Positions 17,665 through 33,169 of a stretch of 64,000 bases of DNA are shown here, piece after piece. A program made the translations under genes and the position numbers. Below the pieces are notes generated by a model. The model did no database searches. It was not told the DNA's origin and was given only the letters and a program-made list of their open reading frames with translations. The number at the start of each line of letters is the position of its first letter. Position 1 is the stretch's first letter. Source of the DNA: Rhodobacter capsulatus (GTDB taxonomy: Bacteria; Pseudomonadota; Alphaproteobacteria; Rhodobacterales; Rhodobacteraceae); assembly GCF_005144475.1 (NCBI RefSeq), contig NZ_SWJZ01000056.1:1-64000 (forward strand). Reading direction: 5' to 3'.

Positions 17665-19377
17665 GTGCGAGAGACAATGCTGCCTGCTGCTCATCTTCAG
17701 TCCGGACGATCGGCGCCAACCATCGCCGTGGCCGATTTTCGCCAGATATTTCACTGGCCCCTGTCCTTGCGCGACCCTTCTGATGCGCGCCGAAAGATCA
17801 AGGATCTCCGCGCAAGCCTCGGCGCCGAATGGGGTGAGCGGACCTCAAAGGACGACGGCATTGCCTATGAGGAAGCGGTTTATTTCCACGATTTCGTGCA
17901 GGAGTTCCTCTATACCCGGGCCGAAGATCAGGATGCCCGCGGGCATTGGCATTTCGATCGCTCCGATATCGAGGAACTTCGCGTTGCGCTTCCCGGAGAT
18001 CCCGTTGGCGACATCGAGATCGGCGGAACGGATTTTCGCATCGAACGTCTGGAACTCGACATCTTCGAATTCGGCGTCGCCATCATCACGCTCGAGGTCG
18101 TGGCGAAACAAAGGCAAGACCTGAACCTTGCCCGGGTCATGGACCTGATCGAATATGTGCGCCGCGCCTTTCCCGGTTTCTGGAAAACCGAAGACGGGAT
18201 CGAGCGCCCGGGCTATTGCCCGCAGGCCGTCATGCTGACACATCGTTCCGGCAAGATCCGCAATCGGATCCTGCGTCCGCAACCGTCCTCGGACGCCCGA
18301 AAGGCGCTGAACTCCAATCGCGTGCCGGAACTCTTTCCCTGGTGGGCCGAATTCGCCCGTGGACTGCGCTTCACAAGTCGCCGCAACGGCGCGCTGGAAT
18401 GGCGTCATGTGCTTGACGAACGCATCCCCGCCATGAGCTACATCCGGCTCGAGGATCATCCGGGCACGGCGGACCGCGCCGTTTTCGAACAGATTTCCGA
18501 GGCCGACTGGCACCGCATCGCCGAAGCCGACAGTTCCGGCAACTCGCTGAAAATGCCGTATAACGATCACTTCCTGCGCAACACCCTGCCCACCGCCTTT
18601 TACGACCGTCACGCCCCCGGCGACACCTTTTCAAGCACCACCCGCATCACCTATGCCGGGCATCATCACGCCTTTGTCGGCAACGGCTGGTTCTTCAAGA
18701 CCCACATCGTCAACCACTTCGAGGGCCACTATCGGCGCATGCATTTCATTGCCATCCTCGAATTCGCGGCGATGCTGACCTTTTCGCGCCGGATCACCGA
18801 CATCGTGCGCGCCGCCACCGACACCCGGGACCGGGGCGCGCAGGAGGCGCTGGCCGACCGCGTCCATGCCACCCGGCAGGATTTCCTGAACTTCATCCAC
18901 TGCTACCACTTCACCCATGTCTCGAACCACCTTCAGGCCCGCGAGATGAACGAGCGGCTGCGCGCCAGCATGGGGCTTGATGCGTTGCGCGCCGATGTCG
19001 AGACCGAATTGCAGAACGCCTCGGATTTCGTCGGCATGATCGAGCAGCGCCAGATGGCGCAATCGCAAAGCGATCTGACCGAATTCGCCACCCTGTTCCT
19101 GCCCGCAACCCTTGGCGCCGGGTTTGGCGGCATGAACTTTCTGGCCGGGCTCGATGTCAACGCGCAGGGTTCGGCCACCGCCATCACCGGCACGGCGGTG
19201 GCGCAGCTCTTCACCTGGGGGGGCATCGCCTATCTGCTGGCGGCGCTGGTGCTGGTCTGGTTGCCGCAGCGGGACGAGCGTCTGCCCGAGGCGCGGCGCA
19301 GGATTCTGGATCGTCTGCTGGGCGCGGCGGCGCTTTTGGGGCTGGCGGCTTTCGGGACATGGAAGCTGTTCGGATGA
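17665..19377 (+). CDS. CorA-like membrane protein, CRISPR type III ancillary effector
   Basis: A 570-residue protein with a large soluble N-terminal part (about 1-475) and a membrane C-terminus. The first helix ends in FGGMNF, matching the (Y/F)GMN signature of CorA divalent-cation channels. A second helix (FTWGGIAYLLAALVLVWL) and a short third follow. Helical sequence before the membrane part fits the long CorA stalk. In type III-B systems CorA proteins act as membrane effectors switched on by SAM-AMP made by Cas10. This one lies next to array 1 and the HD-less Cas10. The start may be GTG at 17665 or ATG at 17677; neither has a strong ribosome binding site. Confidence 0.78.
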   Translation: MRETMLPAAHLQSGRSAPTIAVADFRQIFHWPLSLRDPSDARRKIKDLRASLGAEWGERTSKDDGIAYEEAVYFHDFVQEFLYTRAEDQDARGHWHFDRSDIEELRVALPGDPVGDIEIGGTDFRIERLELDIFEFGVAIITLEVVAKQRQDLNLARVMDLIEYVRRAFPGFWKTEDGIERPGYCPQAVMLTHRSGKIRNRILRPQPSSDARKALNSNRVPELFPWWAEFARGLRFTSRRNGALEWRHVLDERIPAMSYIRLEDHPGTADRAVFEQISEADWHRIAEADSSGNSLKMPYNDHFLRNTLPTAFYDRHAPGDTFSSTTRITYAGHHHAFVGNGWFFKTHIVNHFEGHYRRMHFIAILEFAAMLTFSRRITDIVRAATDTRDRGAQEALADRVHATRQDFLNFIHCYHFTHVSNHLQAREMNERLRASMGLDALRADVETELQNASDFVGMIEQRQMAQSQSDLTEFATLFLPATLGAGFGGMNFLAGLDVNAQGSATAITGTAVAQLFTWGGIAYLLAALVLVWLPQRDERLPEARRRILDRLLGAAALLGLAAFGTWKLFG

Positions 19378-19551: not shown

Positions 19552-19933
19552 GTCTGAGGCCCATGCCCGCATGAATGCGGATTGAGACCCCATGACACAC
19601 ATGGTGTCCTCCTTAACAAGTCTAAGGCCCATGCCCGCATGAATGCGGATTGAGACTGGGGTAGGAACCTCCCTGCTTCTCATTGAGTCTGAGGCCCATG
19701 CCCGCATGAATGCGGATTGAGACCAGTGCAGCCGCTCGGCTGCTTCATCAAGCGTCTGAGCCCCATGCCCGCATGAATGCGGATTGAGACAGACCGAGCA
19801 TGACGTTGGACATGGTAGTGCTCCCTTCCGTCTGAGGCCCATGCCCGCATGAATGCGGATTGAGACCGGTGTTCGAGCGTCGCCGTCACCATTTCGCTCT
19901 GAGCCCCATGCCCGCAGGAATGCGGGGAAAGCG
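19552..19933 (+). CRISPR. CRISPR array 1 (6 repeats, 5 spacers)
   Basis: Repeats of 37 bp begin at 19552, 19620, 19687, 19754, 19830 and 19897. Spacers are 31, 30, 30, 39 and 30 bp. The repeat begins GTCTGAGGCCCATG, has the hairpin CCGCATGAATGCGG and ends in ATTGAGAC, an 8-nt crRNA 5' handle directly after the hairpin, so the array is read on the + strand. Repeat 2 has GTCTAAGG, repeat 4 GTCTGAGCC, and the last repeat is degenerate after the hairpin, marking the old end. All five spacers contain ATG in the strand complementary to the crRNA. Confidence 0.96.
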
Positions 19934-19944
19934 GCGAAAACACC

Positions 19945-19976
19945 AAGGCCGGGCGCGTCACCCAGCGCCCGGCCTT
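19945..19976. terminator. Hairpin between array 1 and cas6
   Basis: A perfect 12-bp inverted repeat, AAGGCCGGGCGC and GCGCCCGGCCTT, lies between the convergent array 1 and cas6. It could terminate transcription from both sides. Confidence 0.55.
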
Positions 19977-20000
19977 GCCATGTTCGGGGCAGGGGCGTGC

Positions 20001-20957
20001 TCAGCCCGGTTTGGCCAGCTGCAGGTCGTAGCGCCCCGCGCCCTTGCTTGTGTGCGAGCCGATATGGGTGGTGGCGCCGAAATGCAGCATCGACAGATCG
20101 AGCGGCGCCGGATCGGCCAGCACCAGCCGCCCCAGCACCCCGCCACCCGGCACCACCCGCCCCTGTCGCCGCGAGCCGCTGGCCCAGGGCGCCGGTTCGA
20201 CCGCCTGCCAGATCCCCTCGGGGCTGGTCTCGGGACGGATCAGGCAGGGGGTTGCGCCGTGCCACAGCGCCATCGCCGCGCTGCGCCGCCAGGCCGCCTC
20301 GATCACCGTGGCGGGCTCGGCGTGGCGGTGATCGCCCGCGCGCAGCGACAGCGGGGTCAGAAAGTCAAGCGCGGCCATCCGCACCGGCCCCTCATGCGCG
20401 GGCAGGCCCTCGGCGCGGCCAAGGCCGAGATCAAGGAGCGCAAGGCGCAGCTTGCGGTTGCCTGCCATGTCGAGGCCAAGCGCCAGCGCCGCCCGCAAGG
20501 CCTCGGCCGCTTCCTCGGCCCAGTCGCCCGCAAGGCCGAACAGATCGAGCGTCAGCCGATAGCCCTCGCGCTGCGGGTCGAGCGAAAAGACATAGGGTTT
20601 GGGCAGGTCCTGAAAGGCGCAGGGTGTGGTGTCGCGGTGAAAGAAATTGATCCGGCCCTGGGGGCGGAAGAACAGTTCCGCCGCCGTTGGCACCCCGGCT
20701 TGCGCCCCGCCCCGGTCGAGCCGTTCGGCCCCCAGCGCCGTGCCCCATGCGCCGCGCAGCCGCGGGATCGCCGACATCGGCTCGAGCGGTTGCGGGCTCC
20801 AGATCAGCGCCGAGATGCGGGTTATGCGCCAGATCCGGTGCAGCCCCGATAGATCGACCGGCGTTGCCGCAGCCTGTGCGAGCGCCTCGGCCAGCCGCGG
20901 ATGCGCTTCGGGCAGGGAGGAGCAAGCGACAAGGCGGTCTGAAAGGGGCACGGGCAC
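20001..20957 (-). CDS. cas6: Cas6-type pre-crRNA processing endoribonuclease
   Basis: A 318-residue RAMP-fold endoribonuclease. The C-terminus carries the Gly-rich loop THIGSHTSKGAGRYDL typical of Cas6 (GxGxxxxxG type). It would cut repeats at the base of the CCGCATGAATGCGG hairpin, leaving the 8-nt ATTGAGAC handle. I chose GTG at 20957, with AAGGA six bases upstream; the longer frame would overlap divergent cas10. One Cas6 presumably serves both repeat types, since they share hairpin and handle. Confidence 0.85.
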   Translation of the reverse strand: MPVPLSDRLVACSSLPEAHPRLAEALAQAAATPVDLSGLHRIWRITRISALIWSPQPLEPMSAIPRLRGAWGTALGAERLDRGGAQAGVPTAAELFFRPQGRINFFHRDTTPCAFQDLPKPYVFSLDPQREGYRLTLDLFGLAGDWAEEAAEALRAALALGLDMAGNRKLRLALLDLGLGRAEGLPAHEGPVRMAALDFLTPLSLRAGDHRHAEPATVIEAAWRRSAAMALWHGATPCLIRPETSPEGIWQAVEPAPWASGSRRQGRVVPGGGVLGRLVLADPAPLDLSMLHFGATTHIGSHTSKGAGRYDLQLAKPG

Positions 20958-21096
20958 CGGAAATCCTTTGTGACGGTGGCCAGAGTGGCAAATCTGTCGC
21001 GGCGCCACAAGCCGGGGCGGCCGAGGTTTTTCTTGCCAGCCCGCGACATTCCGTGCCTGATGGGGCGGTGATGGGTGATGTGGGCGGGCTCGACGC

Positions 21097-22524
21097 ATGG
21101 CGCAGAAGGTGCTTGTGGTCGAAGGCGTGAACTTCGATCAATGTCTTTATGATACCAACGATTTGTCGGTGATCCGCGGGGCGTCGCTGTTGCTGGACGG
21201 GGCCTTGCCGGTGATCTGCGGTGCGGTGACCAGGACGGGGGCGCGGATCGGTGCCAGTCTGGGCGGGGCCTCCAGTTATGAAATCGCCTTCGAGGGCGCC
21301 GAGCCGGCCGAGGTCGAGGCGGCTGTTCGTCGTGCGCTGGCGCAAGACCCGTGGCGGGCCTTGTCTTGGGTGGTTTCGGTGGCGGATACGGCGACCGCCG
21401 CGCGCGGGCGCAACCGGCGCCAGCAATTCCAGACCTGGACGGTCAAGCTCAGCGATGTTCCCGGCGCGGTATGCGAGGATGCGCTGGATCGGGTGCGCCC
21501 GGCCAGTCCGGGGCGGGACGATGCGATCAAGGGGCCACTCTCGCCCGAGACACGGATCCGGCTTGAACATGGGCGTCAGTTCCGGCGTCAGTTCTTTCGC
21601 AACGGCACGCGCAATCTGGTGGAAGACGACATCCTTTGCGCCTCGTTCGAGGAACTTGTCACCCCGCCGCCGAAAGGGCTGCGCGAGGGGATGAAGGGCA
21701 AGATCGCGGTGGTGCATTTCGACGGCGACCGGATGGGCGATCTGCGCCGTCTGGTTGGCGATGATGCGGAATTTTCGGCGCAGATGGGAAAGATGACCGA
21801 GGACATCCTGACCCGGCTGGTCGCAGGTGTCCGGAGGCGGCGTGCCCCCGAGGATCGGCGCTTCCGGATGGAGGTGCTGCTGTGGGGCGGCGACGACATC
21901 ACGCTGGTGGTGCCTGCCTGGGACGTGCTGCAGGTGATCGGTGATTTTCAGGCCGCGATTGCGGGGGTGAAGATCGCAAGCCTTCCCGTCAGTTTCACCG
22001 GGGCGGCGATCGTGGCAAACTACAAGGCGCCGGTGCGAAAGCTGGTGCATCTGGCCGAACGTGCCGTGAAAGTGTCGAAACAGGCGGAGGTGCGCGGGGC
22101 CGTGACCTTCGACATCTTCAAGATGTCGCCGCCGGAGAGACCGCTCGAGGCGCATCGGGCGCAGCTTTTCCCCGGTGCGACGGCGCGCGACATCGCTTTT
22201 TCGGGAGATGACTTCGGTGGCCTGATGGCCCTTCTCGCCGCACGCCGGGAAGCACAGGAAAGGGGGCAGTTCCTGTCACGTTCGCGCGCGCATGATCTTG
22301 TGCAAGCAACGCCGGAAGACCGTGACGATCTGCTGAAAAAGTATCATCTGCGGGTCTTGCAGGTTTCGGCCGCCGATCATCCGCAGGACGCCTTGGCAAA
22401 TCTTTATGCGTTGCCGCAAATGGAGGGGGTGGAGCGGGATCTCTCCCTTGACCTGATGCTCTGGCTCGATCTTGACGAGTTGTATTATGCACCGCCGCAA
22501 GACAGCGCGGAGGCCGCAGCATGA
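21097..22524 (+). CDS. cas10: Cas10-type large subunit, GGDD cyclase, no HD domain
   Basis: A 475-residue signature protein of type III CRISPR systems, shorter than the typical 700-900. It starts directly with the first palm domain (DTNDLSVIRGASLLLDGAL). The second palm domain has VHFDGDRMGDLRR and the cyclase motif LWGGDDITLVV with GGDD at residues 264-267. I find no HD phosphohydrolase motif, so single-strand DNA cleavage is not expected. The intact GGDD predicts synthesis of a nucleotide second messenger on target RNA binding. First gene of a four-gene operon; it overlaps the next by four bases. Confidence 0.88.
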   Translation: MAQKVLVVEGVNFDQCLYDTNDLSVIRGASLLLDGALPVICGAVTRTGARIGASLGGASSYEIAFEGAEPAEVEAAVRRALAQDPWRALSWVVSVADTATAARGRNRRQQFQTWTVKLSDVPGAVCEDALDRVRPASPGRDDAIKGPLSPETRIRLEHGRQFRRQFFRNGTRNLVEDDILCASFEELVTPPPKGLREGMKGKIAVVHFDGDRMGDLRRLVGDDAEFSAQMGKMTEDILTRLVAGVRRRRAPEDRRFRMEVLLWGGDDITLVVPAWDVLQVIGDFQAAIAGVKIASLPVSFTGAAIVANYKAPVRKLVHLAERAVKVSKQAEVRGAVTFDIFKMSPPERPLEAHRAQLFPGATARDIAFSGDDFGGLMALLAARREAQERGQFLSRSRAHDLVQATPEDRDDLLKKYHLRVLQVSAADHPQDALANLYALPQMEGVERDLSLDLMLWLDLDELYYAPPQDSAEAAA

Positions 22525-24152
22525 AGCGATTTCAGGCGCGACTGAGCGTGACCTTGCGCAGCCCGTTCATCTTTCCGGATTCCGAGGCGGTGATCCCGGG
22601 CATCGACATTGTCGCACACAGGAACCGCGCGGAATGTCCTCTGCTGCCACGCGATCAGTTGAAGGGCGTTTTTCGGGATGCCTTGGCCAAATCCCTGCGC
22701 GCCGGCGCGCCAGGGCCGACGGTCGAGGATATCTTCGGCGTGGCATCTGACGACGGTGGGATGCGCGGCGCCTATGAACCAAAGCCCGGGTTGGTGCTGT
22801 TTTCCGATGCGATCGCGGTTGAGGGGCAGGACTTGGGGCGCGTCATCTCGCACCGGGTCGAGATCGATGCCGAAACCGGGGCAGCAAAGGAAGCCCACCT
22901 GTTGTTCGTCGAACTTGTCGCTCCGCGCAGGCAGGCCGTGCGGTTCGAAGCCGATATTGTATGGTTCTGCCGGGATACTTCGGTTGGCGATGCGTTGCGA
23001 CGCGCGCAGAGCTGGATCTCCGCCATTGGTGCAATGAAGTCTTCAGGGTTCGGCGAAGTGCTCGACATCCGGATCGGCGACGAAACCGTGGTGGATTTGG
23101 CCGGGCTGACGCCTCAGGCTCCTCCCGCCGAGCGCACGTGCTACGTGTTCGGGTTCGATCGCCCCTATCTGGTCGACGCGAGGATCGCGGCCGACAACGT
23201 GCTGGTCGGGCAGGTTACCGTTCCCGGCGGTGTCATCAAAGGTGCATTGGCGCGCAAACTTGATCTGGCCGGGGTGCTGCCTGGCCATGCAAGGGCACTG
23301 ACGGATATGTCGATATCGCATGCGCGCCCCGAAGGCGCGCAAGAGGTCTTGCCCTTGTCGGTTGTGCGTAGCGCGGCCACGGGGGAGGCGTTCGATTTGT
23401 GGCAAAACCCCGATACCGATCTCGATGACATCCAGTTTCAGATCGACTGGAAACACGGTTTTGCCGATCAGGAGAACCGGGAAGTCAGGGTCCACACGGC
23501 CGTGACCGAGGAAACCGAGATCGCCGAGACGGGCAACCTGTTCGTGATCGATGCCGTCGATCCGGCAGACGGGCGATATCGAGTAGAGGTGGATTATCGC
23601 CGTGTGCAGCCTGAATCCCGTGATCTTCTTCATGCAATGCTGATGGACGGCTTGCACGGGATCGGGCGTACCGGCGCGATTGCGACGGTGCAGGCATGTT
23701 CCGCCGTCGAGCCAGTTGTGGACAAGCTGACCGGCACCGTGTTTGCGGTCAGCTTGATGACCGATGCAATTCTCGCATCGCCGGTGGACGAAACGGAGGC
23801 TGGCGCCGCATATCAGGCTTACTGGTCGAGAGTTCTCCATCCGCACCCGGTGGAACTCATCGAGTTTCTCGCTTCCCAGCGCGTTGTGGGCGGTTATCTT
23901 GCCAAGCGCTACCGTAGCGGTGCCGCGCAAAACTACCGTCCATGGTGCGTGAGCAACGCCGGTTCCACCTTCCTGCTGCGCGGCGAGACCCTCGGTGTTG
24001 CGCTTTCGGAGTTGCGCAAGGCACGTCTTCCGGCCCCTTTCTTCGACGGTTCGCCGATGACCTGGGACACCTGCCCATTCCAGCCCGAGAACGGGTTCGG
24101 GGAAATCAGTGTGACCGCCGTCGATCTGCGCGAGGACCCTCGCCATGGCTGA
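22521..24152 (+). CDS. Fused RAMP protein, candidate Cas7-Cas5-Cas11 of type III-Dv
   Basis: A 543-residue protein with at least two RAMP units. The first (about 1-200) starts LSVTLRSPFIFPDSEAVIPG, with CPLLPRDQLKGVFRDAL as the insertion/Gly-rich element. The second starts near 205 with CYVFGFDRPYLVDARIAADN, then VTVPGGVIKGALARKLD. A C-terminal part of about 120 residues could be the small-subunit-like piece. The position directly after cas10 and the following two genes match type III-Dv, where the second gene is a Cas7-Cas5-Cas11 fusion. The domain assignment is inference from order and motifs. It overlaps cas10 by four bases and the next gene by eight. Confidence 0.72.
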   Translation: MKRFQARLSVTLRSPFIFPDSEAVIPGIDIVAHRNRAECPLLPRDQLKGVFRDALAKSLRAGAPGPTVEDIFGVASDDGGMRGAYEPKPGLVLFSDAIAVEGQDLGRVISHRVEIDAETGAAKEAHLLFVELVAPRRQAVRFEADIVWFCRDTSVGDALRRAQSWISAIGAMKSSGFGEVLDIRIGDETVVDLAGLTPQAPPAERTCYVFGFDRPYLVDARIAADNVLVGQVTVPGGVIKGALARKLDLAGVLPGHARALTDMSISHARPEGAQEVLPLSVVRSAATGEAFDLWQNPDTDLDDIQFQIDWKHGFADQENREVRVHTAVTEETEIAETGNLFVIDAVDPADGRYRVEVDYRRVQPESRDLLHAMLMDGLHGIGRTGAIATVQACSAVEPVVDKLTGTVFAVSLMTDAILASPVDETEAGAAYQAYWSRVLHPHPVELIEFLASQRVVGGYLAKRYRSGAAQNYRPWCVSNAGSTFLLRGETLGVALSELRKARLPAPFFDGSPMTWDTCPFQPENGFGEISVTAVDLREDPRHG

Positions 24153-25386
24153 TTTTCGCATATCGGATTTTCGGTTCGAACTCGAAGTTGTATCGGATCT
24201 TCATATAGGCTCCGGGCAAAGTGAACTCATGCCGGCCTTCGCCAGGGCGCGCGCCAGCGACGAGGCCCCCGAGGTGGCCGAAATCGTCAGGGATTGCGAT
24301 CACTTGCCGGTCATTCCCGGGACCAGTCTGAAGGGCTGCCTGCGCAGCTTGCTGGAGGACGAGGCGCAGATTCTGCTGTTCGGCACTCCGAAGTCGAAAG
24401 CCGATGATGGTGGTGGCCGCATGGGGGTCTTGCGCGTGCGCGACGCCCATCATCTTGCCGCCCCCGAAGAGACGCAGCCGACCCCGATGCAGAACGGCAC
24501 CTTCGTCCTGATCAAGAATGCGATCGACACGGGGCGCGGTACGTCGAAGACGAATTTCCTGTTTGCCAAGTGGATGGTGCCGCAGGGAACGATCTTCTCT
24601 GGCTGTCTTCGACTCGAATTGTGGGGCGACTATCCGCTTCAACTTCGAGCAGCGGAAGCCTTGTTCCGCCTTTTCAAAAGTCTCGCGCAAGATGAGGGCG
24701 TGTCCTTGGGAAAGGACACCAACAGTGGCGACGGCCGTGTCCGGCTCCGGGGTGAGATCCGCGAAACCCAGTTCGTCGCTCAAGACGGTTCGCTCGTTCC
24801 CGGACCCGAACGGATCTTCGAAGTGCCGGGGGAACCAGACCTGCGCTTCACCAGTTTGCGCATGTCGCATCGCGGTCCGAGTTTCACCAGCGATTTCGCC
24901 TATGATCGCGAAAAGGAAAAAAAGCGAAATCCGAATGCGCCGCATCTTCGGGCATTGCGACGGAACGGTGTGCCGGTGATTTCGGGCTCGGCGGTTGCCG
25001 GAGTTCTGCGCGCCGATTTCGCCTTCCTGCTGCGCAGGCAGGGGCTGGAAGAAGCCGCAGTCACCGATCGGATCACCCGACTGTTCGGGGCGACGTCCCG
25101 CGCAGGTCGCCTTGTCGTTATTGCCGAGGACGTTTCCGCGACGGGGAGGCAAACGCTCATGTCGAACAAGATCGACCGTCTCTCGGGCGGCACCATCGAC
25201 AATGCCCTCTTTGCGATCGACGCCGATCATGGCGTGAAATTTACTCTGCGCTTGGGGCTTTCTGATCTGGCCGACGACGCCGACCGGGAGCTGCTCGGCG
25301 ATCTGGTCGCGATGGTGCGCAAGAACGGCGTCGAACTCGGTCATTCCGTCAACGCCGGGTTCGGCTGGTTCCGTGTCGAGGAGTAG
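24145..25386 (+). CDS. Tandem Cas7 fusion (Cas7-2x, Csm3-like)
   Basis: A 413-residue protein with two Csm3/Cas7-like RAMP domains. The first has VVSDLHIGSGQSE and LPVIPGTSLKGCLRSLLED, then LFG and KNAIDTGRGTSKTNFLF. The second (from about 225) has GVPVISGSAVAGVLRADFAF, LFG, and SNKIDRLSGGTIDNALFAID, a standard Cas7 block that includes the Asp-containing active loop, and ends HSVNAGFGWFRV. This is the arrangement of Cas7-2x in type III-Dv complexes. It would form two backbone subunits that bind crRNA and cut target RNA at 6-nt intervals. Confidence 0.82.
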   Translation: MADFRISDFRFELEVVSDLHIGSGQSELMPAFARARASDEAPEVAEIVRDCDHLPVIPGTSLKGCLRSLLEDEAQILLFGTPKSKADDGGGRMGVLRVRDAHHLAAPEETQPTPMQNGTFVLIKNAIDTGRGTSKTNFLFAKWMVPQGTIFSGCLRLELWGDYPLQLRAAEALFRLFKSLAQDEGVSLGKDTNSGDGRVRLRGEIRETQFVAQDGSLVPGPERIFEVPGEPDLRFTSLRMSHRGPSFTSDFAYDREKEKKRNPNAPHLRALRRNGVPVISGSAVAGVLRADFAFLLRRQGLEEAAVTDRITRLFGATSRAGRLVVIAEDVSATGRQTLMSNKIDRLSGGTIDNALFAIDADHGVKFTLRLGLSDLADDADRELLGDLVAMVRKNGVELGHSVNAGFGWFRVEE

Positions 25387-25389
25387 CAG

Positions 25390-27429
25390 ATGTCCACATC
25401 CGACAAGACCCGCGACAACGGCTTTCGGCACAAGCCCCGGCATGATGGGCCTTCGTCCGGGCCCGGCAAAGCCGGAAAACACCACAACGCTCCGATCTCC
25501 TTCGAAACACCCCCGGCCCCGTTCCGCTTCATTCCGCTTCCCGAAAAGGTTCATCTGGCCGAGCCCGCGGTGCGCGCGGCTTGGGAGGCTGGCACGCTCC
25601 ACTCGCATCCGCTGCCGGGCGGCTTTTCGGGCAGCTTGACGGTCGAAATCGCCTTCGACGGGCCGATGTTGGTGGGGGGGGCAGCCACCGGGCCTGCAGA
25701 TCAGGCGCAACAGGTGCGGCCCGTGTGCCTTGGCGCGGAATACGTCCTGCCCGGCTCCACCCTGCGAGGGCTTCTGCGCAGCGTCACCGAACTCGTCAGC
25801 GCCTCGCGCATCCGGCAGATGAACCTGCATCGCCGCTACGGCATCCGGGATTTCTCCCACCCGCTGTTCAAGGACACCGACCGCAAGCGCCCGCGCGCGG
25901 GATGGCTGACCCTCGTGAACGGCAAGGCTGTCCTGACGGAAACCGAATGGTACGAAATCCGCATCCGCGATCTCACCGAAGAGGCCAATTCGGGGCAATT
26001 CCATTACGACTGGCTGAACATGAATATCGCTGAGCGCTACGCGCATGTTGGGTGTGTCGCCGAGGGCAGCGGCAAGCGTTTCGTATTCGACCAACCGACC
26101 GCTTTCGCAAAAAAGGGCAATCAGGCGCATCTGGTTGTCCCGCGAGACGGCGGCGACGTTGATGGTATTTTCGTTTTTTCCAACGCCTCACCGACGCTGG
26201 AAGGCTTGAGCGTCGAAACCCTTGACGCGCAAGACCTCGTGAAGCGCAAGCGGCTGTTCAAGAAAACCGAGGCCGTCTTCGCGCATGAACCTTTCGGGGA
26301 GCCGCAGCCCATTCCCGATGATGTCTGGGAAACCTTCGAACTCAACAACTCTTCGCCCTCGCGCCACAAGCCCGAACGCGAGGGGAACTGGAAGGAACTC
26401 TGGCCGACCCTCAAGGCGGGCGGGCGCATTCCCGTTTTCTGGCTCTCCAACGCTGATCTGAAGCGCGAGCCGCACGACCAGGCGGTGGCCGACTTCGGCC
26501 TTGTCCGGGTGTTCAAGCGCGCGCATCTCTATTCGGTCAAGGACAAGCTCGATCTGACCGATGCGGGCGCGCATATGACGCTGCCGGGCAGCCCCGACTA
26601 TCAGCCGGACCTGACCGAGGCGCTGTTCGGCTATGTCCACGAACCCGAGAGCAAGACCGAAAACACCGCCGCCCTGCACAAGGACCGACATCTGGCCGGG
26701 CGGCTCGGCTTCGGGTTCGGCTATCTGAGCTCGAACGCAGATGTCCGCACGAGCGACACCTGGGAAACCGTGCAAAGTGCCCCGAAACCCTCCTTCGGTC
26801 CCTATTATCTGGCGCAGGGGCAGCATGACTGGTCAGACCCCGCCTCGACCCTCGCCGGGGTCAAGACCTATCCCGCGCGCGAGGCGAACGAGGCCGCGCT
26901 GAGATCCACGCTGCAAAGCTGGATCCCGACCAAGGGAAACGCCGCAAGGAACACGAAGATCCGCTCGAAACTGGTGTTCCTGCTGCCGCGCAACCGGGGC
27001 GACAGGATCACCTTCGCCGCCGAGATCCGTTTTCACAATGTCACCCCGGTCGAACTGGGGGCGCTTGTCTGGGCGATGACCTTTGGCGGCGCGCCGCAGT
27101 TGCGCCACATGATCGGTCGCGCCAAGGCCGCCGGGGCCGGGCAGGCGCGCCTGACCCCGGTTGCGGTGCAGCTGCGCCACGGCGACGAGGAGAGGCCCGA
27201 GGCCGAGGCCTTTTGCGCCGCACGGATGCGCGATTTCGAAACTTTCATGGGCGAGGGCTGGCGCGAGAGCGACACCGTCCGCGCGCTTCTGGCCCATGCC
27301 GATCCGGCCCGCGGCCGCGATCTCGATCGGGCCGGGCAGCTGAGCTATCTGCCGCTTCAGCTGCACCGCAAGCTGCGCGATCACGCCCGCACCTCGCCCA
27401 AACCCCGGATGCTCGGCCCGGACGGCTGA
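25390..27429 (+). CDS. Large Cas7 with insertion (TIGR03986-like RAMP protein)
   Basis: A 679-residue RAMP protein. After a basic, low-complexity N-terminus of about 75 residues come VEIAFDGPMLVGG and EYVLPGSTLRGLLRSVTELV, the pattern I associate with TIGR03986. A long middle insertion (about 150-520) precedes the closing RAMP part DRITFAAEIRFHNVTPVELG and a Gly-rich end (QLRHMIGRAKAAGAGQARL). In type III-Dv this is the Cas7-insertion subunit. Last gene of the cas10 operon, four bases after the previous gene and followed by a strong terminator hairpin. Confidence 0.82.
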   Translation: MSTSDKTRDNGFRHKPRHDGPSSGPGKAGKHHNAPISFETPPAPFRFIPLPEKVHLAEPAVRAAWEAGTLHSHPLPGGFSGSLTVEIAFDGPMLVGGAATGPADQAQQVRPVCLGAEYVLPGSTLRGLLRSVTELVSASRIRQMNLHRRYGIRDFSHPLFKDTDRKRPRAGWLTLVNGKAVLTETEWYEIRIRDLTEEANSGQFHYDWLNMNIAERYAHVGCVAEGSGKRFVFDQPTAFAKKGNQAHLVVPRDGGDVDGIFVFSNASPTLEGLSVETLDAQDLVKRKRLFKKTEAVFAHEPFGEPQPIPDDVWETFELNNSSPSRHKPEREGNWKELWPTLKAGGRIPVFWLSNADLKREPHDQAVADFGLVRVFKRAHLYSVKDKLDLTDAGAHMTLPGSPDYQPDLTEALFGYVHEPESKTENTAALHKDRHLAGRLGFGFGYLSSNADVRTSDTWETVQSAPKPSFGPYYLAQGQHDWSDPASTLAGVKTYPAREANEAALRSTLQSWIPTKGNAARNTKIRSKLVFLLPRNRGDRITFAAEIRFHNVTPVELGALVWAMTFGGAPQLRHMIGRAKAAGAGQARLTPVAVQLRHGDEERPEAEAFCAARMRDFETFMGEGWRESDTVRALLAHADPARGRDLDRAGQLSYLPLQLHRKLRDHARTSPKPRMLGPDG

Positions 27430-27451
27430 GCCAGGACCGGCCCTTGCCACC

Positions 27452-27495
27452 GAAACGCATCAGAGCCGGAGGCAACTCCGGCTCTGAAGCGTTTC
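27452..27495. terminator. Terminator of the cas10 operon
   Basis: A strong hairpin: CAGAGCCGGAG, loop GCAA, CTCCGGCTCTG, extended by GAAACGC and GCGTTTC. It lies between the last effector gene and the trailer end of array 2, and could stop both the operon on + and array 2 transcripts on -. Confidence 0.75.
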
Positions 27496-27512
27496 AACGC
27501 TCACATTTCTAG

Positions 27513-27952
27513 CGCCAAATCCGCATTCATGCGGGCGTGGTCGTGCCACCCAATCCGAACTACCCAGCCGCTGTGATGGCGGGTCTCAATCCGCATTCAT
27601 GCGGGCGTGGTCGTGCCACTCCGCTTCACCGCCCAAGGAGGGCGACACGTCTCAATCCGCATTCATGCGGGCGTGGTCGTGCCACGAAGAGGAGCCAGTA
27701 AATGGCCCATTCGAGTCTCAATCCGCATTCATGCGGGCGTGGTCGTGCCACACAGTAAATCAGCCGAGCGACCGGTTGCTAGTCTCAATCCGCATTCATG
27801 CGGGCGTGGTCGTGCCACGGAGGGGCTGTCGTTCGTTGTCGTCGCTGCGTCTCAATCCGCATTCATGCGGGCGTGGTCGTGCCACGTAAGAGCCGGCGCC
27901 TCCGTTGCTGGCAAGGTCTCAATCCGCATTCATGCGGGCGTGGTCGTGCCAC
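27513..27952 (-). CRISPR. CRISPR array 2 (7 repeats, 6 spacers)
   Basis: Repeats of 37 bp begin (+ coordinates) at 27513, 27583, 27649, 27715, 27782, 27849 and 27916. Spacers are 33, 29, 29, 30, 30 and 30 bp. On the minus strand the repeat begins GTGGCACGACCACG and ends CCGCATGAATGCGG plus ATTGAGAC. The handle and the degenerate repeat at the left end (27513) show that the array is read on the minus strand from a leader on the right. In the + strand, spacer 3 contains AGAGGAGCCAGTAAATG, a ribosome binding site with start codon. Confidence 0.97.
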
Positions 27953-28114
27953 ACACCCTCTGCAATCCGCGCCCGGAAATCAAGGAAAAAGTGGCACTTC
28001 CAACCATCCTCACCGCCGCAGGGGCAAAACGGCCCCGAAACCACCGATTTTCTGTTTCATGATCCGATTTTCTGTTACATTCCAGAGCGCTGCACATTTT
28101 CCAACGAGGTTTCC
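27953..28114. promoter_or_regulatory. Leader of array 2 and upstream region of RT-cas1
   Basis: This region has two jobs: leader of the leftward array and 5' region of rightward RT-cas1. The first about 65 bases are nearly identical to the same segment after array 3 (30265 on), and both end with TTTTCCAACGAGG before the start codon. A 13-bp tandem repeat, CCGATTTTCTGTT, occurs at 28044 and 28064, exactly 20 bp apart, as in a binding site repeated on one face of the helix. Confidence 0.65.
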
Positions 28115-30025
28115 CTGTCTGACACCCTGTTCGAGCGGATCACCACCTGGGAGGCCCTCGATCGGGCCTGGGCCAAGGTGCGCGCCAATGGCGGCGGTGC
28201 CGGGGGCGACGGTGTCACGCTCGACGATTTCGCGCAAGCCGCTGCGGCGCGGCTGTCGGCCCTTTCGGCGGCCTTGCGGGCCGGGATCTACCACCCCGCG
28301 CCGCTGCGCCGCCTCGACATCGCCAAACCCGACGGCGGCAGCCGACCGCTGGCGATTCCCGCCATCCTCGATCGCATCGCGCAAACCGCCGTCGCGCAGG
28401 CGCTCTCGCCGATCTTCGAGCGCGAATTTTCCGACGCCAGCTTTGGCTATCGCCCGAACCGCTCGGTCCGCATGGCGGTCGAGCGCATCGCGATGCTGCG
28501 CCGACGCGGCTTTACCCATGTCGTCGAAGGCGACATCGTGCGCTATTTCGAGAATGTCCCCCATGATCCGCTGCTGACGCTGCTCGAGACGCAGCTGCCC
28601 GATGAGCCGCGCCTGTGTGCGTTGATCGGGCTATGGCTGGAACATGGCGGGCAGATGCTGGGCACCCCGGGGCGCGGGCTGGCGCAGGGCTCGCCGCTGT
28701 CGCCGCTGCTCTCGAACCTCTATCTTGACAGCTTCGACGACACCTTGACCGCCGAGGCGGCGCTGGTGCGCTTTGCCGATGATTTCATCCTGTTGACCCG
28801 CAAGGAGGCCGATGCCCATGCGGCGCTGGCGCGGGCGGCCGAGGAACTGGCGGCCCGCGGTCTTGCCGTTGATGCGGCAGGCTCCAAAGTCACGGATTTC
28901 GACGCGGGCTTCGCCTTTCTCGGGCATCTGTTCCTGCGCTCGCTGGTGCTCAAGTCCGAAGGGGCCGATCCCGTTCCCGCGCCCGCATCCGGGGCCGAAA
29001 CCGAAACCGATGCGGGATATGACCCCGGTCCCCGGGTGTTGCGCCTGTTCGAGCCGGGGCGCCGGCTTGGGCTGGGCAACGACAGTTTCCGGGTGCTTGC
29101 CCCCGATGGCGCGGTGCTGGTGCAACTGGCGCAACACCGCGTCGGGCGTATCGAGATCGGGCCTTGTGCCGGCATCGACGATGACGCGCTGCGCCAGGCG
29201 CTCGGTGCGGGGATCGAGATCGCCCATCTGGATGGGCTGGGTCAGGTTCTGGGCACCACCATGCCGGCGGCGGGCGATCATGGCGCGTTGCATCTTGCGC
29301 AGGCGCGGGTGGTGCTTGATCCGGCACTTCGGTTGGCGTTGGCGCTTCAGCTGGTGTCGGGGCGGATCCGCAACCAGCGCGCCCGGCTGCAGGTGCTCAA
29401 CCGCCGCGCCGAAACCGCCAAGGCGGTCAAGGCTGCGCAGGAGCTGGGCATCTGCCTGCGGCGCCTGCGCGGGGTCAAGACGCTCGAGGCGCTGCGCGGC
29501 GTCGAGGGGCTGGCCGCCGCAGTCTATTGGCCCGCGCTGGCGTCGCTCTGCGCGGGGGCGCCGAAACGCTTCACCCGGCAACGCCCGGCGCGCGATGCGT
29601 TGAACGCGGTGCTCAACTACCTCTGTGCTCTGCTGGAACGCGACATCCGCGCCGCGATCCTGTCGGCGGGGCTGCATCCGGGTTTCGGCGTCCTGCACGC
29701 CAGCACCGATCGCGGCGAGGGGTGCGTCTACGATCTGATGGAGGGGTTCCGCGCCCTTCTGACCGAGGGGGTGGCGGTGACGCTGTTCAACCGCAAGGTC
29801 CTGCGCCCCGAGCATTTCACCGAAGATGGTGCGCGCATTTCCCCGGCCGGGCAACGCGCGATCATCGAGGGGTATGAGGCCGCGCTTGACCGGGTCGTGC
29901 GCTCGAACCACAGCGGCGCGCGGCACAAGCTGCGCGTGGTCATGCGCGAAGAGGCCCGCGCCTTTGCCCGCCATTGCCGCGCCCCCGACCAGGGCAGCTT
30001 CGAGCCGCAGGTTCAGGACTACTGA
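28115..30025 (+). CDS. cas1: Reverse transcriptase-Cas1 fusion
   Basis: An adaptation integrase fused to a group-II-intron-like reverse transcriptase, 636 residues. The RT part (1 to about 290) has GDIVRYFENVPHD, GLAQGSPLSPLLSNLYLD and the catalytic FADD at residues 220-223. The Cas1 part has the conserved VEGLAAAVYW (Glu), GFGVLHAS (His) and CVYDLMEGF (Asp). No Cas6 domain is fused. It should add spacers from RNA as well as DNA. The start is probably CTG at 28115: GAGG lies five bases upstream, and the site aligns with the cas2 ATG in a duplicated upstream block. The open frame further upstream runs through the array. Confidence 0.93.
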   Translation: MSDTLFERITTWEALDRAWAKVRANGGGAGGDGVTLDDFAQAAAARLSALSAALRAGIYHPAPLRRLDIAKPDGGSRPLAIPAILDRIAQTAVAQALSPIFEREFSDASFGYRPNRSVRMAVERIAMLRRRGFTHVVEGDIVRYFENVPHDPLLTLLETQLPDEPRLCALIGLWLEHGGQMLGTPGRGLAQGSPLSPLLSNLYLDSFDDTLTAEAALVRFADDFILLTRKEADAHAALARAAEELAARGLAVDAAGSKVTDFDAGFAFLGHLFLRSLVLKSEGADPVPAPASGAETETDAGYDPGPRVLRLFEPGRRLGLGNDSFRVLAPDGAVLVQLAQHRVGRIEIGPCAGIDDDALRQALGAGIEIAHLDGLGQVLGTTMPAAGDHGALHLAQARVVLDPALRLALALQLVSGRIRNQRARLQVLNRRAETAKAVKAAQELGICLRRLRGVKTLEALRGVEGLAAAVYWPALASLCAGAPKRFTRQRPARDALNAVLNYLCALLERDIRAAILSAGLHPGFGVLHASTDRGEGCVYDLMEGFRALLTEGVAVTLFNRKVLRPEHFTEDGARISPAGQRAIIEGYEAALDRVVRSNHSGARHKLRVVMREEARAFARHCRAPDQGSFEPQVQDY

Positions 30026-30090
30026 GCCACGCCCTCCCACCCCGCCGCCCGCAGGAGCACGGCAGCCGGATCCCTTTGGCGGAGATCATG

Positions 30091-30264
30091 GCTCCGATCC
30101 GCATTCATGCGGGCGTGGTCGTGCCACCTATGAAATTCTCGATGTTCCTGAACGCCACGTCTCAATCCGCATTCATGCGGGCGTGGTCGTGCCACTTAGA
30201 TACAGAAGGAGGCCAAAATGGCCCAAGGTCTCAATCCGCATTCATGCGGGCGTGGTCGTGCCAC
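30091..30264 (-). CRISPR. CRISPR array 3 (3 repeats, 2 spacers)
   Basis: Repeats begin at 30091 (degenerate first six bases), 30159 and 30228; spacers are 31 and 32 bp. The repeat is the same as in array 2 and read on the minus strand, with its leader on the right. In the + strand, spacer 1 begins CTATGAAATTCTCG, an ATG with open frame, and spacer 2 contains GAAGGAGGCCAAAATG, a ribosome binding site with start codon. Confidence 0.95.
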
Positions 30265-30426: not shown

Positions 30427-30717
30427 ATGGCCAGGGGCGAAATGCTGACCGTCTTTTCCTACGACATCGGCGCCAATCGCAAAAGACGAAAAGCCGCAGC
30501 CATCCTTGAGGAGGCGGCCAGCCGGGTGCAGAAATCGGTCTTTGAAACCCGGATGTCGCGCAACCGCGCCCAGGCGGTGGCGCAGCGCGTGGCGGCGCTG
30601 CTCGACCCGGGCGACAGCCTGCGGGTCTATGTTCTGGGCGCCGACGGCGAGACCAGCAGCCGGGTCTATGGCGATGCCGTGCCGCTGGAGCCCGAAGGCG
30701 ACCACTGGCTGTTCTGA
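30427..30717 (+). CDS. cas2: Cas2, CRISPR adaptation protein
   Basis: A 96-residue protein of normal Cas2 size with ferredoxin-like fold. The N-terminus MLTVFSYDIGANRKRRKAA, followed by ASRVQKSVFETRM, is the Cas2 pattern, with the conserved Asp after FSY. It bridges Cas1 dimers in the spacer-integration complex. It sits downstream of RT-cas1, separated by array 3 and its leader. Start ATG at 30427 follows ACGAGG. Confidence 0.94.
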   Translation: MARGEMLTVFSYDIGANRKRRKAAAILEEAASRVQKSVFETRMSRNRAQAVAQRVAALLDPGDSLRVYVLGADGETSSRVYGDAVPLEPEGDHWLF

Positions 30718-30849
30718 GCCGCGACACGGCCCGCTGGCTCTGGCCCTTTGTGCGGAAAGCTGACAGGATCGGTCGTGCGGCCTTTCGGGGCAAGGACATT
30801 TCAACGAACCCGATCGGGGGCCGTCGCGGTCCCGTTTGCAAGGTGTTTC

Positions 30850-31713
30850 ATGGCGACGACGATTTACGATGCCTTCAATCAGTTCAGATCGAACCTGGAA
30901 ATCACCAGCCTGCAGGAAAGCACGACCTCCACGCGTCAGCAAAACGTGCGCGAGGCAGTCGAGGCCGATTTTTCGGTGCAGGAGTCGTTTCTGGCGGGGT
31001 CTTACCGGCGTCACACGATGATCGCGCCACTGAACGCGGCGGATATCGATGTGTTTGTGGTGCTGCATCCGAAATACCATGCTCCGCTGGGACAACGCGA
31101 TCTTTTGTCGGCGCTCATGACGACGCTGAAGAAAAAGTATCCAAGGACGCCAAAGATCAAACCCGACGGGCAGGCGGTGACGATCACCTTCACCGATTTC
31201 GAAGTCGACGTGGTGCCCGGGTTTTACCAAGTAGGTGGCGGGTTTCTTATTCCCGACGCCGGACTGAATCGCTGGATTGCCACGGACCCGAAACGCCACG
31301 TGGAAATGTGGTCGATAGTGAACAAGGGCCACAACGGGATGATGGTTCCCCTGATCAAGATGATGAAATGCTGGAACCGGCAGCAGAGGTATCCGCTGCG
31401 GTCGTTTCACCTTGAAGTGATGGTCATGCATGTTCTCCAAGGTATCGTCATCACGGACTATCCCAGCGGTGTTCGCTGGGCCTTTGACAAGATGCGAGGC
31501 GCGATCCGGGCGAGGATCGCCGATCCTGCGGGATACAGCGATGACATTGCGCCGGGGCTTTCGCCCATGGACAGGGAAAGGCTTGCACGCCGGTTGGATG
31601 CCGCGTTCAACACCGCGATGCAAGCCGAGAGCAATGCTCAATACGGGAATGTAAAGACCTCCATGGATTTCTGGAGAAGCCTGTTCGGAGATTTCTTTCC
31701 GGCGTACGGCTAG
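30850..31713 (+). CDS. CD-NTase (SMODS) nucleotidyltransferase, orphan
   Basis: A 287-residue cGAS/DncV-like nucleotidyltransferase. It has the GS motif in FLAGSYRRHTMIAPL, the first two catalytic Asp in NAADIDVFVVL and the third in DFEVDVVPGF. The C-terminal helical region fits the usual domain. Such enzymes make cyclic oligonucleotides in CBASS defence. No effector or ancillary CBASS gene is next to it: cas2 is upstream and the integrase is convergent downstream. I chose ATG at 30850 because the upstream extension has no match to the family. It could be a CBASS remnant or feed a CRISPR effector (inference). Confidence 0.85.
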   Translation: MATTIYDAFNQFRSNLEITSLQESTTSTRQQNVREAVEADFSVQESFLAGSYRRHTMIAPLNAADIDVFVVLHPKYHAPLGQRDLLSALMTTLKKKYPRTPKIKPDGQAVTITFTDFEVDVVPGFYQVGGGFLIPDAGLNRWIATDPKRHVEMWSIVNKGHNGMMVPLIKMMKCWNRQQRYPLRSFHLEVMVMHVLQGIVITDYPSGVRWAFDKMRGAIRARIADPAGYSDDIAPGLSPMDRERLARRLDAAFNTAMQAESNAQYGNVKTSMDFWRSLFGDFFPAYG

Positions 31714-33129: not shown

Positions 33130-33169
33130 CGGCTTTGTCTCCTTGATGCCGATTGATCGCATATCTCGG

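What the first reader, a model, noticed from the sequence alone, without database searches (positions are those of the whole stretch)
19552..30264. Spacers are enriched for translation-start regions of mRNAs
In the strand complementary to the predicted crRNA, four of 13 spacers contain a Shine-Dalgarno sequence followed by ATG: array 1 spacer 1 (AAGGAGGACACCATG), array 1 spacer 4 (GGAAGGGAGCACTACCATG), array 2 spacer 3 (AGAGGAGCCAGTAAATG) and array 3 spacer 2 (GAAGGAGGCCAAAATG). Four more begin within about five bases of an ATG with an open frame: array 1 spacers 2, 3 and 5, and array 3 spacer 1 (CTATGAAATTC). Array 2 spacers 2 and 5 contain AAGGAGG or GGAGGGG without ATG. With an RT-Cas1 present, this suggests selective capture of mRNA 5' regions, inserted so that the crRNA is antisense to ribosome binding sites. 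That would give interference and perhaps translational silencing.
Basis: partly seen in the sequence, partly recalled or inferred. Interest (0 to 1): 0.88.

Follow-up and report, generated by a model that had tools for sequence, protein, structure and literature searches.

The report
CRISPR spacers antisense to mRNA starts
A bacterial RNA-targeting CRISPR locus has four of thirteen memory sequences that look like the start of a gene's message, but comparison with hundreds of memories from similar systems suggests mostly an ordinary preference for the message strand plus small numbers, not a proven special mechanism.

Summary
The motifs are in the sequence. The locus is a III-D-like type III CRISPR system with RT-Cas1, Cas2, Cas6, Cas10 and CorA, and three arrays with 13 spacers. 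Antisense to the predicted crRNA, 4 of 13 spacers carry a Shine-Dalgarno-like tetramer followed by ATG; the other strand has none. This exceeds own flanking DNA (0.38 expected) and the coding strand of GC-near phages (0.51, P about 0.001, post hoc). The second class, an ATG near the spacer end, is weak here and absent elsewhere.

Replication is ambiguous. In 515 spacers from 25 other loci 38 have the motif (10 on the opposite strand), about twice the unmatched coding-strand expectation. But the reversed order (ATG before the tetramer) is common too (23); the ratio, 1.65, lies within the range of five phage coding strands (1.09-1.68). GC-matched fragments remove the excess in the first set. RT-less arrays gave 7 of 172 (Fisher P 0.09; 0.04 after moving one truncated-RT system). 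The four loci nearest by RT-Cas1 show no excess (4 of 80 against 3.8).

Robust: spacers are antisense to coding strands, as type III needs. Selective capture of mRNA starts is not shown, nor excluded. No protospacer was found, with part of the spacers searched.

The parts
17665..19377 (+). CorA-like membrane protein, 570 aa
   Evidence: PADLOC CorA E 1.4e-77; no Pfam or NCBIfam hit at E 0.001
19552..19933 (+). Array 1: 6 repeats (last degenerate), 5 spacers; crRNA on + strand, leader on the left
19589..19619 (-). Array 1 spacer 1, target strand TTGTTAAGGAGGACACCATG...: SD (8-nt match) + ATG
19657..19686 (-). Array 1 spacer 2, target strand has an early ATG; start reading not favoured
19724..19753 (-). 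Array 1 spacer 3, early ATG; also reads as internal LDEAAERLH; the viral matches found with a pattern built on it lie inside long ORFs
19791..19829 (-). Array 1 spacer 4 (39 nt), GGAAGGGAGCACTACCATG: short SD + ATG
19867..19896 (-). Array 1 spacer 5, early ATG in an open frame
20001..21098 (-). Cas6
   Evidence: Pfam CRISPR_Cas6 E 2e-6, PADLOC E 4e-17
21097..22524 (+). Cas10, 475 aa, GGDD at residue 264
   Evidence: Pfam Cas10-Cmr2_palm2 E 1.6e-9; PADLOC; motif
22521..24152 (+). Cas7/Csm3-like RAMP protein, 543 aa
   Evidence: PADLOC Csm3 E 3e-59; Pfam RAMPs
24145..25386 (+). Cas7 III-D-like RAMP protein, 413 aa
   Evidence: Pfam RAMPs E 6e-28; PADLOC Cas7_IIId E 2e-22
25390..27429 (+). Large Cas7 III-D-like RAMP protein, 679 aa
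   Evidence: PADLOC Csm3 E 1e-53 and Cas7_IIId E 8e-53; TIGR03986 above its cut-off
27513..27952 (-). Array 2: 7 repeats (leftmost degenerate), 6 spacers; crRNA on - strand, leader on the right
27686..27714 (+). Array 2 spacer, target strand GAAGAGGAGCCAGTAAATGGCC: SD + ATG; start reading strongly favoured over internal
28115..30025 (+). RT-Cas1 fusion; start probably CTG at 28115 (no ATG/GTG/TTG nearby in frame)
   Evidence: Pfam RVT_1 E 1.7e-26 and Cas_Cas1 E 8e-55 (run on the ORF from 27905); start (inference)
30091..30264 (-). Array 3: 3 repeats (leftmost degenerate), 2 spacers; leader on the right, 57 of 66 identical to that of array 2
30128..30158 (+). Array 3 spacer with CTATGAAATTC; also reads as internal YEILDVPERH
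30196..30227 (+). Array 3 spacer, AGAAGGAGGCCAAAATGGCC: SD + ATG; start reading most strongly favoured
30427..30717 (+). Cas2, 96 aa
   Evidence: Pfam CRISPR_Cas2 E 4e-16

Best explanation
This is an ordinary RT-Cas1-bearing type III (III-D-like) CRISPR system. Its spacers come from transcribed genes of unidentified elements and are kept in the orientation that makes the crRNA antisense to mRNA, because type III effectors act only on complementary transcripts (established knowledge; passages). In the complementary strand one then sees the coding strand of dense, SD-rich genes, in which purine-rich tetramers before an ATG are common, some of them true gene starts. The high share in this locus (4 of 13) is mostly small-number fluctuation picked out by eye, on top of a modest bias that AT- and purine-rich composition can largely produce. 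Shown: the orientation, the motifs, the strand asymmetry in other RT loci, the failure of the 'early ATG' class to replicate. Inferred: that the source is mRNA rather than DNA, and that selection makes the asymmetry.
For: Strand asymmetry is general: SD-ATG 38 target against 10 opposite in 515 spacers of 25 other loci, and 7 against 0 in 172 spacers of RT-less arrays. Reversed-order control: ATG before SD is in 23 of 515; forward:reverse is 1.65, against 1.46 on average (1.09 to 1.68) on the coding strands of five phages. GC-matched phage coding fragments predict 19.4 of 237 against 21 seen. The early-ATG class is 26 against 29.4 expected of 237. The four nearest loci by RT-Cas1 (at least 50% identity) give 4 of 80 against 3.8; one of them, the host's own second system, 0 of 19, though its RT is truncated. 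Given the pooled RT rate, P for the window times 26 loci is 0.15 (5-mer) to 0.32 (4-mer). Nine of the 25 other loci have no SD-ATG spacer at all. Spacers are AT-richer than their flanks in 15 of 16 loci of the first set, window included.
Against: Against coding-strand nulls not matched for GC, the excess outside the window is about twofold in both sets: 21 of 237 against 11.1, P 0.003; 17 of 278 against 8.8, P 0.008; together 38 against 19.9, P 0.0002. Against genes of two alphaproteobacterial plasmids the first set is 21 against 7.1, P 1e-5. Restricted to alphaproteobacterial loci GC-matching leaves 19 of 199 against 13.9, P 0.10. A start score is shifted upward in the 237 spacers (P 0.002), not on the opposite strand (P 0.45) or in 107 RT-less spacers (P 0.33). 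RT-less arrays stand at 3 of 107 against 4.9 in the first control set; RT against RT-less is Fisher P 0.086, or 0.037 with the truncated-RT system counted as RT-less. More distant alphaproteobacterial loci gave 15 of 119 against 5.0, P 0.0002. Dinucleotide shuffles of the 515 spacers average 21.3 against 38 seen, highest of 60 rounds 29, so composition alone does not explain everything.
Confidence: 0.72

Rival explanations
1. RT-Cas1 captures mRNA fragments with a real, perhaps lineage-dependent, preference for translation-start regions (transcript 5' ends, unstructured AT-rich leaders, or fragments protected by an initiating ribosome, which are of about spacer length), and the crRNAs bind across ribosome sites.
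For: Window 4 of 13 against 0.51, none on the other strand. Two of the four fit a start far better than internal coding (log-likelihood differences 9.9 and 14.9). About twofold excess in two independent sets, and RT above RT-less at P 0.04-0.09. The 5-mer test is 8 against 3.8 in the second set, P 0.04. Several small loci have shares like the window's (L121, L048, L035, L041, L037: 22-30%), one of them a Cas13a locus with RT-Cas1 (L035).
Against: The reversed-order control is nearly as high relative to phages; GC-matching removes the excess in the first set; the closest RT-Cas1 relatives show none; the 5-mer test is not significant in the first set (7 against 5.4). L035, L041 and L043 owe their orientation to a hairpin rule that I applied after seeing SD on the other strand of L035; without them alphaproteobacterial loci give 14 of 176 against 7.8, P 0.025.
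Confidence: 0.14
2. The enrichment comes from selection after acquisition: crRNAs against early, highly transcribed, ribosome-accessible start regions protect better, so survivors carry them, whatever the acquisition step does.
For: In T. thermophilus the strand and position bias of type III spacers came from selection of resistant clones (passages). RT-less arrays show the same strand asymmetry, 7 against 0 of 172, and the second RT-less set (Thermus, Synechocystis) has 4 of 65 against 2.0 from both-strand flanks, much like the RT loci.
Against: The first RT-less set shows no start excess over the coding-strand expectation (3 of 107 against 4.9). Nothing here tests protection.
Confidence: 0.1
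3. Spacers come from single-stranded RNA phages, whose genomes are all coding strand.
For: Some spacers are hairpin-prone (window mean folding z -0.71, P 0.09), and no DNA-phage protospacer was found for the spacers searched.
Against: The structure bias over 250 spacers is weak (P 0.017). Few genes per genome would not give 30% starts. No RNA-virus collection was searched.
Confidence: 0.04

Closest known systems
RT-Cas1 type III systems able to acquire spacers from RNA (Marinomonas mediterranea III-B; Vibrio vulnificus III-D by recall)
   Same: RT-Cas1 fusion with Cas2 beside type III effector genes; arrays next to the adaptation genes; spacers with few or no matches, as PMC5513706 reports (passages)
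   Different: Acquisition from RNA was not tested here. In M. mediterranea new RNA-derived spacers are only moderately biased to the antisense orientation (passages of PMC5576922).
Start-codon-proximal acquisition by the RT-less type III-A system of Streptococcus thermophilus (Zhang et al. 2021, as described in PMC9048733 section 11, read)
   Same: Enrichment near gene starts on one strand
   Different: There it lay roughly 10-50 bp downstream of start codons of host genes, without an RT, and was linked to structures formed by displaced single-stranded DNA; here the spacers are natural and span SD and ATG
Type VI-A systems with RT-Cas1 (Toro et al. 2019, PMC6753606, passages)
   Same: L035 (Cas13a) has an RT-Cas1 43% identical to this one and 2 of 7 SD-ATG spacers in the target strand
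   Different: Single-protein effector; not a type III locus

Membership tests
Type III CRISPR-Cas with RT-Cas1 fusion (III-D-like) | Reverse transcriptase domain fused to Cas1, beside cas2 | tested here: met
   RVT_1 and Cas_Cas1 in one ORF; Cas2; FADD motif
Type III CRISPR-Cas with RT-Cas1 fusion (III-D-like) | Cas10 with an intact palm GGDD and several Cas7-type RAMP proteins | tested here: met
Type III CRISPR-Cas with RT-Cas1 fusion (III-D-like) | Subtype III-D proper (III-D Cas7 set, Cas5/Csx10, Cas11/Csx19; list from recall) | tested here: inconclusive
   Best PADLOC matches are Cas7_IIId and Csm3, with a Csm4 model labelled III-D on 22521-24152; no separate Cas5/Csx10 or Csx19 was identified, and NCBIfam names only TIGR03986 above its cut-off among the effector genes
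Type III CRISPR-Cas with RT-Cas1 fusion (III-D-like) | Repeat hairpin with an 8-nt 5' handle of the crRNA | tested here: met
   5-bp stem followed by ATTGAGAC
RNA-acquiring adaptation module | Spacers taken from RNA in an RT-dependent way | not testable with these tools
   needs an acquisition assay
Start-region-selective acquisition (proposed) | Spacers of this and related RT loci enriched for SD-ATG over coding-strand and reversed-order controls | tested here: inconclusive
   met in the window; about twofold over unmatched coding strands elsewhere; not over GC-matched or reversed-order controls

The most novel reading that the evidence does not exclude
Some RT-Cas1 lineages, this one included, preferentially bank translation-initiation regions of invader mRNAs, perhaps as initiating-ribosome footprints or short 5'-terminal fragments, so that their crRNAs cover ribosome binding sites and can block translation as well as trigger the type III response; the bias would be lineage-specific and so diluted in pooled RT loci.
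Probability: 0.13. Interest if true: 0.8.

Novelty: new member of a known kind. Interest (0 to 1): 0.33.

Why it matters
[quoted passage not shown] A start-region bias would say something about the RNA substrate without any protospacer. This work gives controls that separate such a bias from the ordinary antisense orientation (opposite strand, reversed motif order, GC-matched coding fragments, RT-less arrays), and shows that a striking 13-spacer pattern weakens under them, leaving at most about a twofold effect worth testing in a larger set.

Tried and rejected
Phage collection: 9 of 13 spacers searched one by one (with E up to 10; 123-127 with E up to 1); only weak, chance-like matches, the best at E 0.02, over a gene start of an Aeromonas phage. 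A tenth (29 nt) was too short for the tool; three were not searched. IMG/VR: 6 of 13 spacers by exact or degenerate patterns; one 20-nt SD-ATG match that does not extend, and degenerate matches inside ORFs. Own genome and 60 other genomes: one spacer only, up to 3 mismatches, only itself. All 13 against 1.64 Mb of loci fetched here: short partial matches only. So the claim cannot be settled by mapping.

Rejected: secondary structure as the driver (weak); a first null with flattened GC bins ('unmatched' column) overstates the expectation and is replaced; the log-likelihood classifier is too permissive: elsewhere it of 237 against 33.5 expected but also 52 on the opposite strand.

Rows dropped before counts: RT-bearing loci in which no array was found within the stretch fetched (L039, L045/L046, L072-L074, L095-L102); L049 and L094, identical to L041 and L013 where they overlap; overlapping shorter loci (L022, L024, L025, L027); a one-spacer continuation of an array in L032; short I-E-like arrays in L041/L049; a three-repeat array in L075; spacers over 46 nt; duplicate spacers in set 2; a two-repeat candidate in L127. 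L028 is counted among the 15 'RT' loci although its RT is truncated; the recount without it is. The RT of the other loci was taken from the search hits, not checked motif by motif; in L124-L126 RT and Cas1 are separate genes, and in L047 the RT is a separate gene and Cas1 was not looked for.


Full report
What is there. The window holds a type III CRISPR locus: CorA-like protein, array 1, Cas6, Cas10 (GGDD), three Cas7-type RAMP proteins, array 2, RT-Cas1, array 3, Cas2, then a SMODS-type nucleotidyltransferase and an integrase. The best library matches are to III-D and III-A Cas7/Csm3 models, so I call it III-D-like; NCBIfam gave no hit for Cas10. The 24-nt end of the repeat occurs 13 times in the host assembly (up to 3 mismatches allowed, all 13 exact), all in this window.

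Orientation. The repeat of arrays 2 and 3 ends in a 5-bp stem followed by the 8-nt ATTGAGAC, and array 1 shares that end. Degenerate repeats lie at the distal end of each array. Arrays 2 and 3 share a leader on the other side (57 of 66).

The motifs. The quoted sequences are present in the strand complementary to the crRNA. With a 4-nt SD core, 3-10 nt and ATG, 4 of 13 spacers score on the target strand and none on the other; with a 5-nt SD core and 2-10 nt, 3 and none. Two of the four (27686-27714 and 30196-30227) fit a gene start much better than internal codons (differences 9.9 and 14.9); the other two are moderate (3.1 and 4.6). Of the 'early ATG' spacers two have protein-like internal readings, although the classifier prefers the start reading by 3.2 and 3.7; viral matches of one of these lie inside long ORFs, but they were found with a pattern built on that spacer.

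Nulls for the window. Own flanking DNA on both strands expects 0.38 (4-mer) and 0.07 (5-mer). Since functional type III spacers must be antisense to transcripts, a fairer null is the coding strand. I used six annotated phages, two of them roseophages and one a Rhodobacter phage, for each locus the two nearest in GC: expected 0.51 and 0.25, P 0.0013 and 0.0018. GC-matched fragments of four of them expect 0.70, P 0.004. Genes of two alphaproteobacterial plasmids with 30 nt upstream expect 0.39, P 0.0005. Thus 4 of 13 is unusual under each, but the hypothesis came from these same spacers. On phage coding strands such a hit is a true start in 41% (4-mer) or 59% (5-mer) of cases.

Replication set 1. 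RT-Cas1 relatives were sought in 394 family, 385 class and 398 phylum genomes (8, 5 and 4 positive, own genome included, at different E limits), in the genome contig collection (3 loci) and in plasmids (3), with small follow-ups. Fifteen loci with arrays gave 237 spacers. SD-ATG: 21 target, 3 opposite; expected 6.4 from both-strand flanks, 7.1 from the two plasmids' genes, 11.1 on the coding strand of GC-near phages, P 0.003; the 5-mer version 7 against 5.4, P 0.29; early open ATG 26 against 29.4. With GC-matched phage fragments the expectation is 19.4, and 13.9 against 19 seen (P 0.10) without the one cyanobacterial locus L050; matching AT-rich spacers to rare AT-rich pieces of GC-rich phages probably overcorrects. 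Four loci with RT-Cas1 at least 50% identical (L028, L029, L031, L033) give 4 of 80 against 3.8; the rest of the alphaproteobacterial loci give 15 of 119 against 5.0, P 0.0002. A start score is shifted upward in the 237 (P 0.002) but not in 107 RT-less spacers (P 0.33).

Replication set 2. Ten further loci, nine cyanobacterial plasmid stretches and one of a Rhodococcus plasmid, picked from the 176 records because an RT lies with cas1, gave 278 spacers. SD-ATG: 17 target, 7 opposite; expected 7.9 from both-strand flanks and 8.8 from annotated genes of three of the loci with 30 nt upstream, P 0.008; the 5-mer version 8 against 3.8, P 0.04.

Controls. RT-less arrays (a III-A locus L077, L078, L081, an array in L029 that I take for type I-E by its repeat, Thermus L128, Synechocystis L129) gave 7 target and 0 opposite of 172: 3 of 107 against 4.9 in the first four, 4 of 65 against 2.0 from both-strand flanks in the last two. 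I checked the absence of an RT only in ten ORFs of L077, take it for L128 and L129 from the annotation shown, and did not check L078 and L081. RT against RT-less: Fisher P 0.086. The host's second system has only the C-terminal part of the RT domain and no SD-ATG in 19 spacers; counting it as RT-less changes P to 0.037, a choice made after seeing the data.

The telling control. If start regions were captured, SD before ATG should rise but ATG before SD should not. In 515 spacers the numbers are 38 and 23; in five phages' coding strands the rates are 0.038-0.053 and 0.023-0.035, ratios of 1.09-1.68, 1.46 on average. The RT ratio, 1.65, lies at the upper edge of that range. Much of the excess is therefore purine- and AUG-rich composition; dinucleotide shuffles of the spacers account for 21 of the 38, never more than 29 in 60 rounds. 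A real start excess of one or two spacers in a hundred is not excluded.

Spread over loci. Shares of SD-ATG run from 0 (9 of the 25 other loci) to 3 of 10 (L121), with L048 and L035 at 2 of 7, L041 at 3 of 12 and L037 at 2 of 9; the window has 4 of 13. This could be chance in small arrays or a lineage effect.

What is robust. Spacers of these systems are antisense to coding strands: SD-ATG 38 against 10, and the target strand more coding-like in 150 of 237 where random phage coding fragments reach 81%; the III-A control gives 34 of 59, the I-E-like array 16 of 37. This is what type III interference requires. Passages that I read ascribe it to selection in T. thermophilus (PMC7515739) and describe a moderate, RT-dependent acquisition bias in M. 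mediterranea (PMC5576922). Spacers are AT-richer than their surroundings in 15 of 16 loci of set 1 with the window.

Prior work. A review section (PMC9048733, section 11, read) reports that an RT-less S. thermophilus III-A system acquires host spacers preferentially about 10-50 bp downstream of start codons. Four searches for papers linking RT-Cas1 or type III spacers with start codons, ribosome binding sites or Shine-Dalgarno sequences listed, by title and start of abstract, none on start-region capture by RT-Cas1; I did not read most of those papers, and the library lacks most subscription papers, including the RT-Cas1 recording paper of 2018, which I know only by recall and by citation.

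Verdict. As a property of RT-Cas1 systems, start-region capture is not shown; a bias of up to about twofold remains open.

Noticed in passing
window 28115-30025: RT-Cas1 has no ATG/GTG/TTG in frame near its conserved start; a CTG at 28115 follows TTTTCCAACGAGG, the same string that precedes the cas2 ATG at 30427, so a CTG start is likely.
   Followed up: partly
L028 9845-13204 and L087 1930-2312 (host contig C29): A second CRISPR system in the same genome, with related repeats and a Cas1 that keeps only the C-terminal part of the RT domain; four arrays, 19 spacers, none with SD-ATG.
   Followed up: partly
L035 8732-15796: A Cas13a effector (1409 aa) with its own RT-Cas1 in a genome of the host's family; read in the orientation given by the hairpin rule, 2 of 7 spacers carry SD-ATG.
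   Followed up: partly
window 30748-31713: A SMODS (CD-NTase-like) nucleotidyltransferase directly downstream of cas2, next to an integrase at 31726-33162; possibly a separate defence gene on a mobile island.
   Followed up: no
window arrays 1 versus 2 and 3: Array 1 has a repeat that differs in its 5' half from that of arrays 2 and 3 but shares the stem and handle, and its leader is different apart from a CAGAGGG next to the repeat.
   Followed up: partly
L047 9907-12465: A III-D-like locus with a separate RT gene whose 37 spacers are rich in SD-like sequences in the target strand (SD 5-mer in 10, opposite strand 4).
   Followed up: partly
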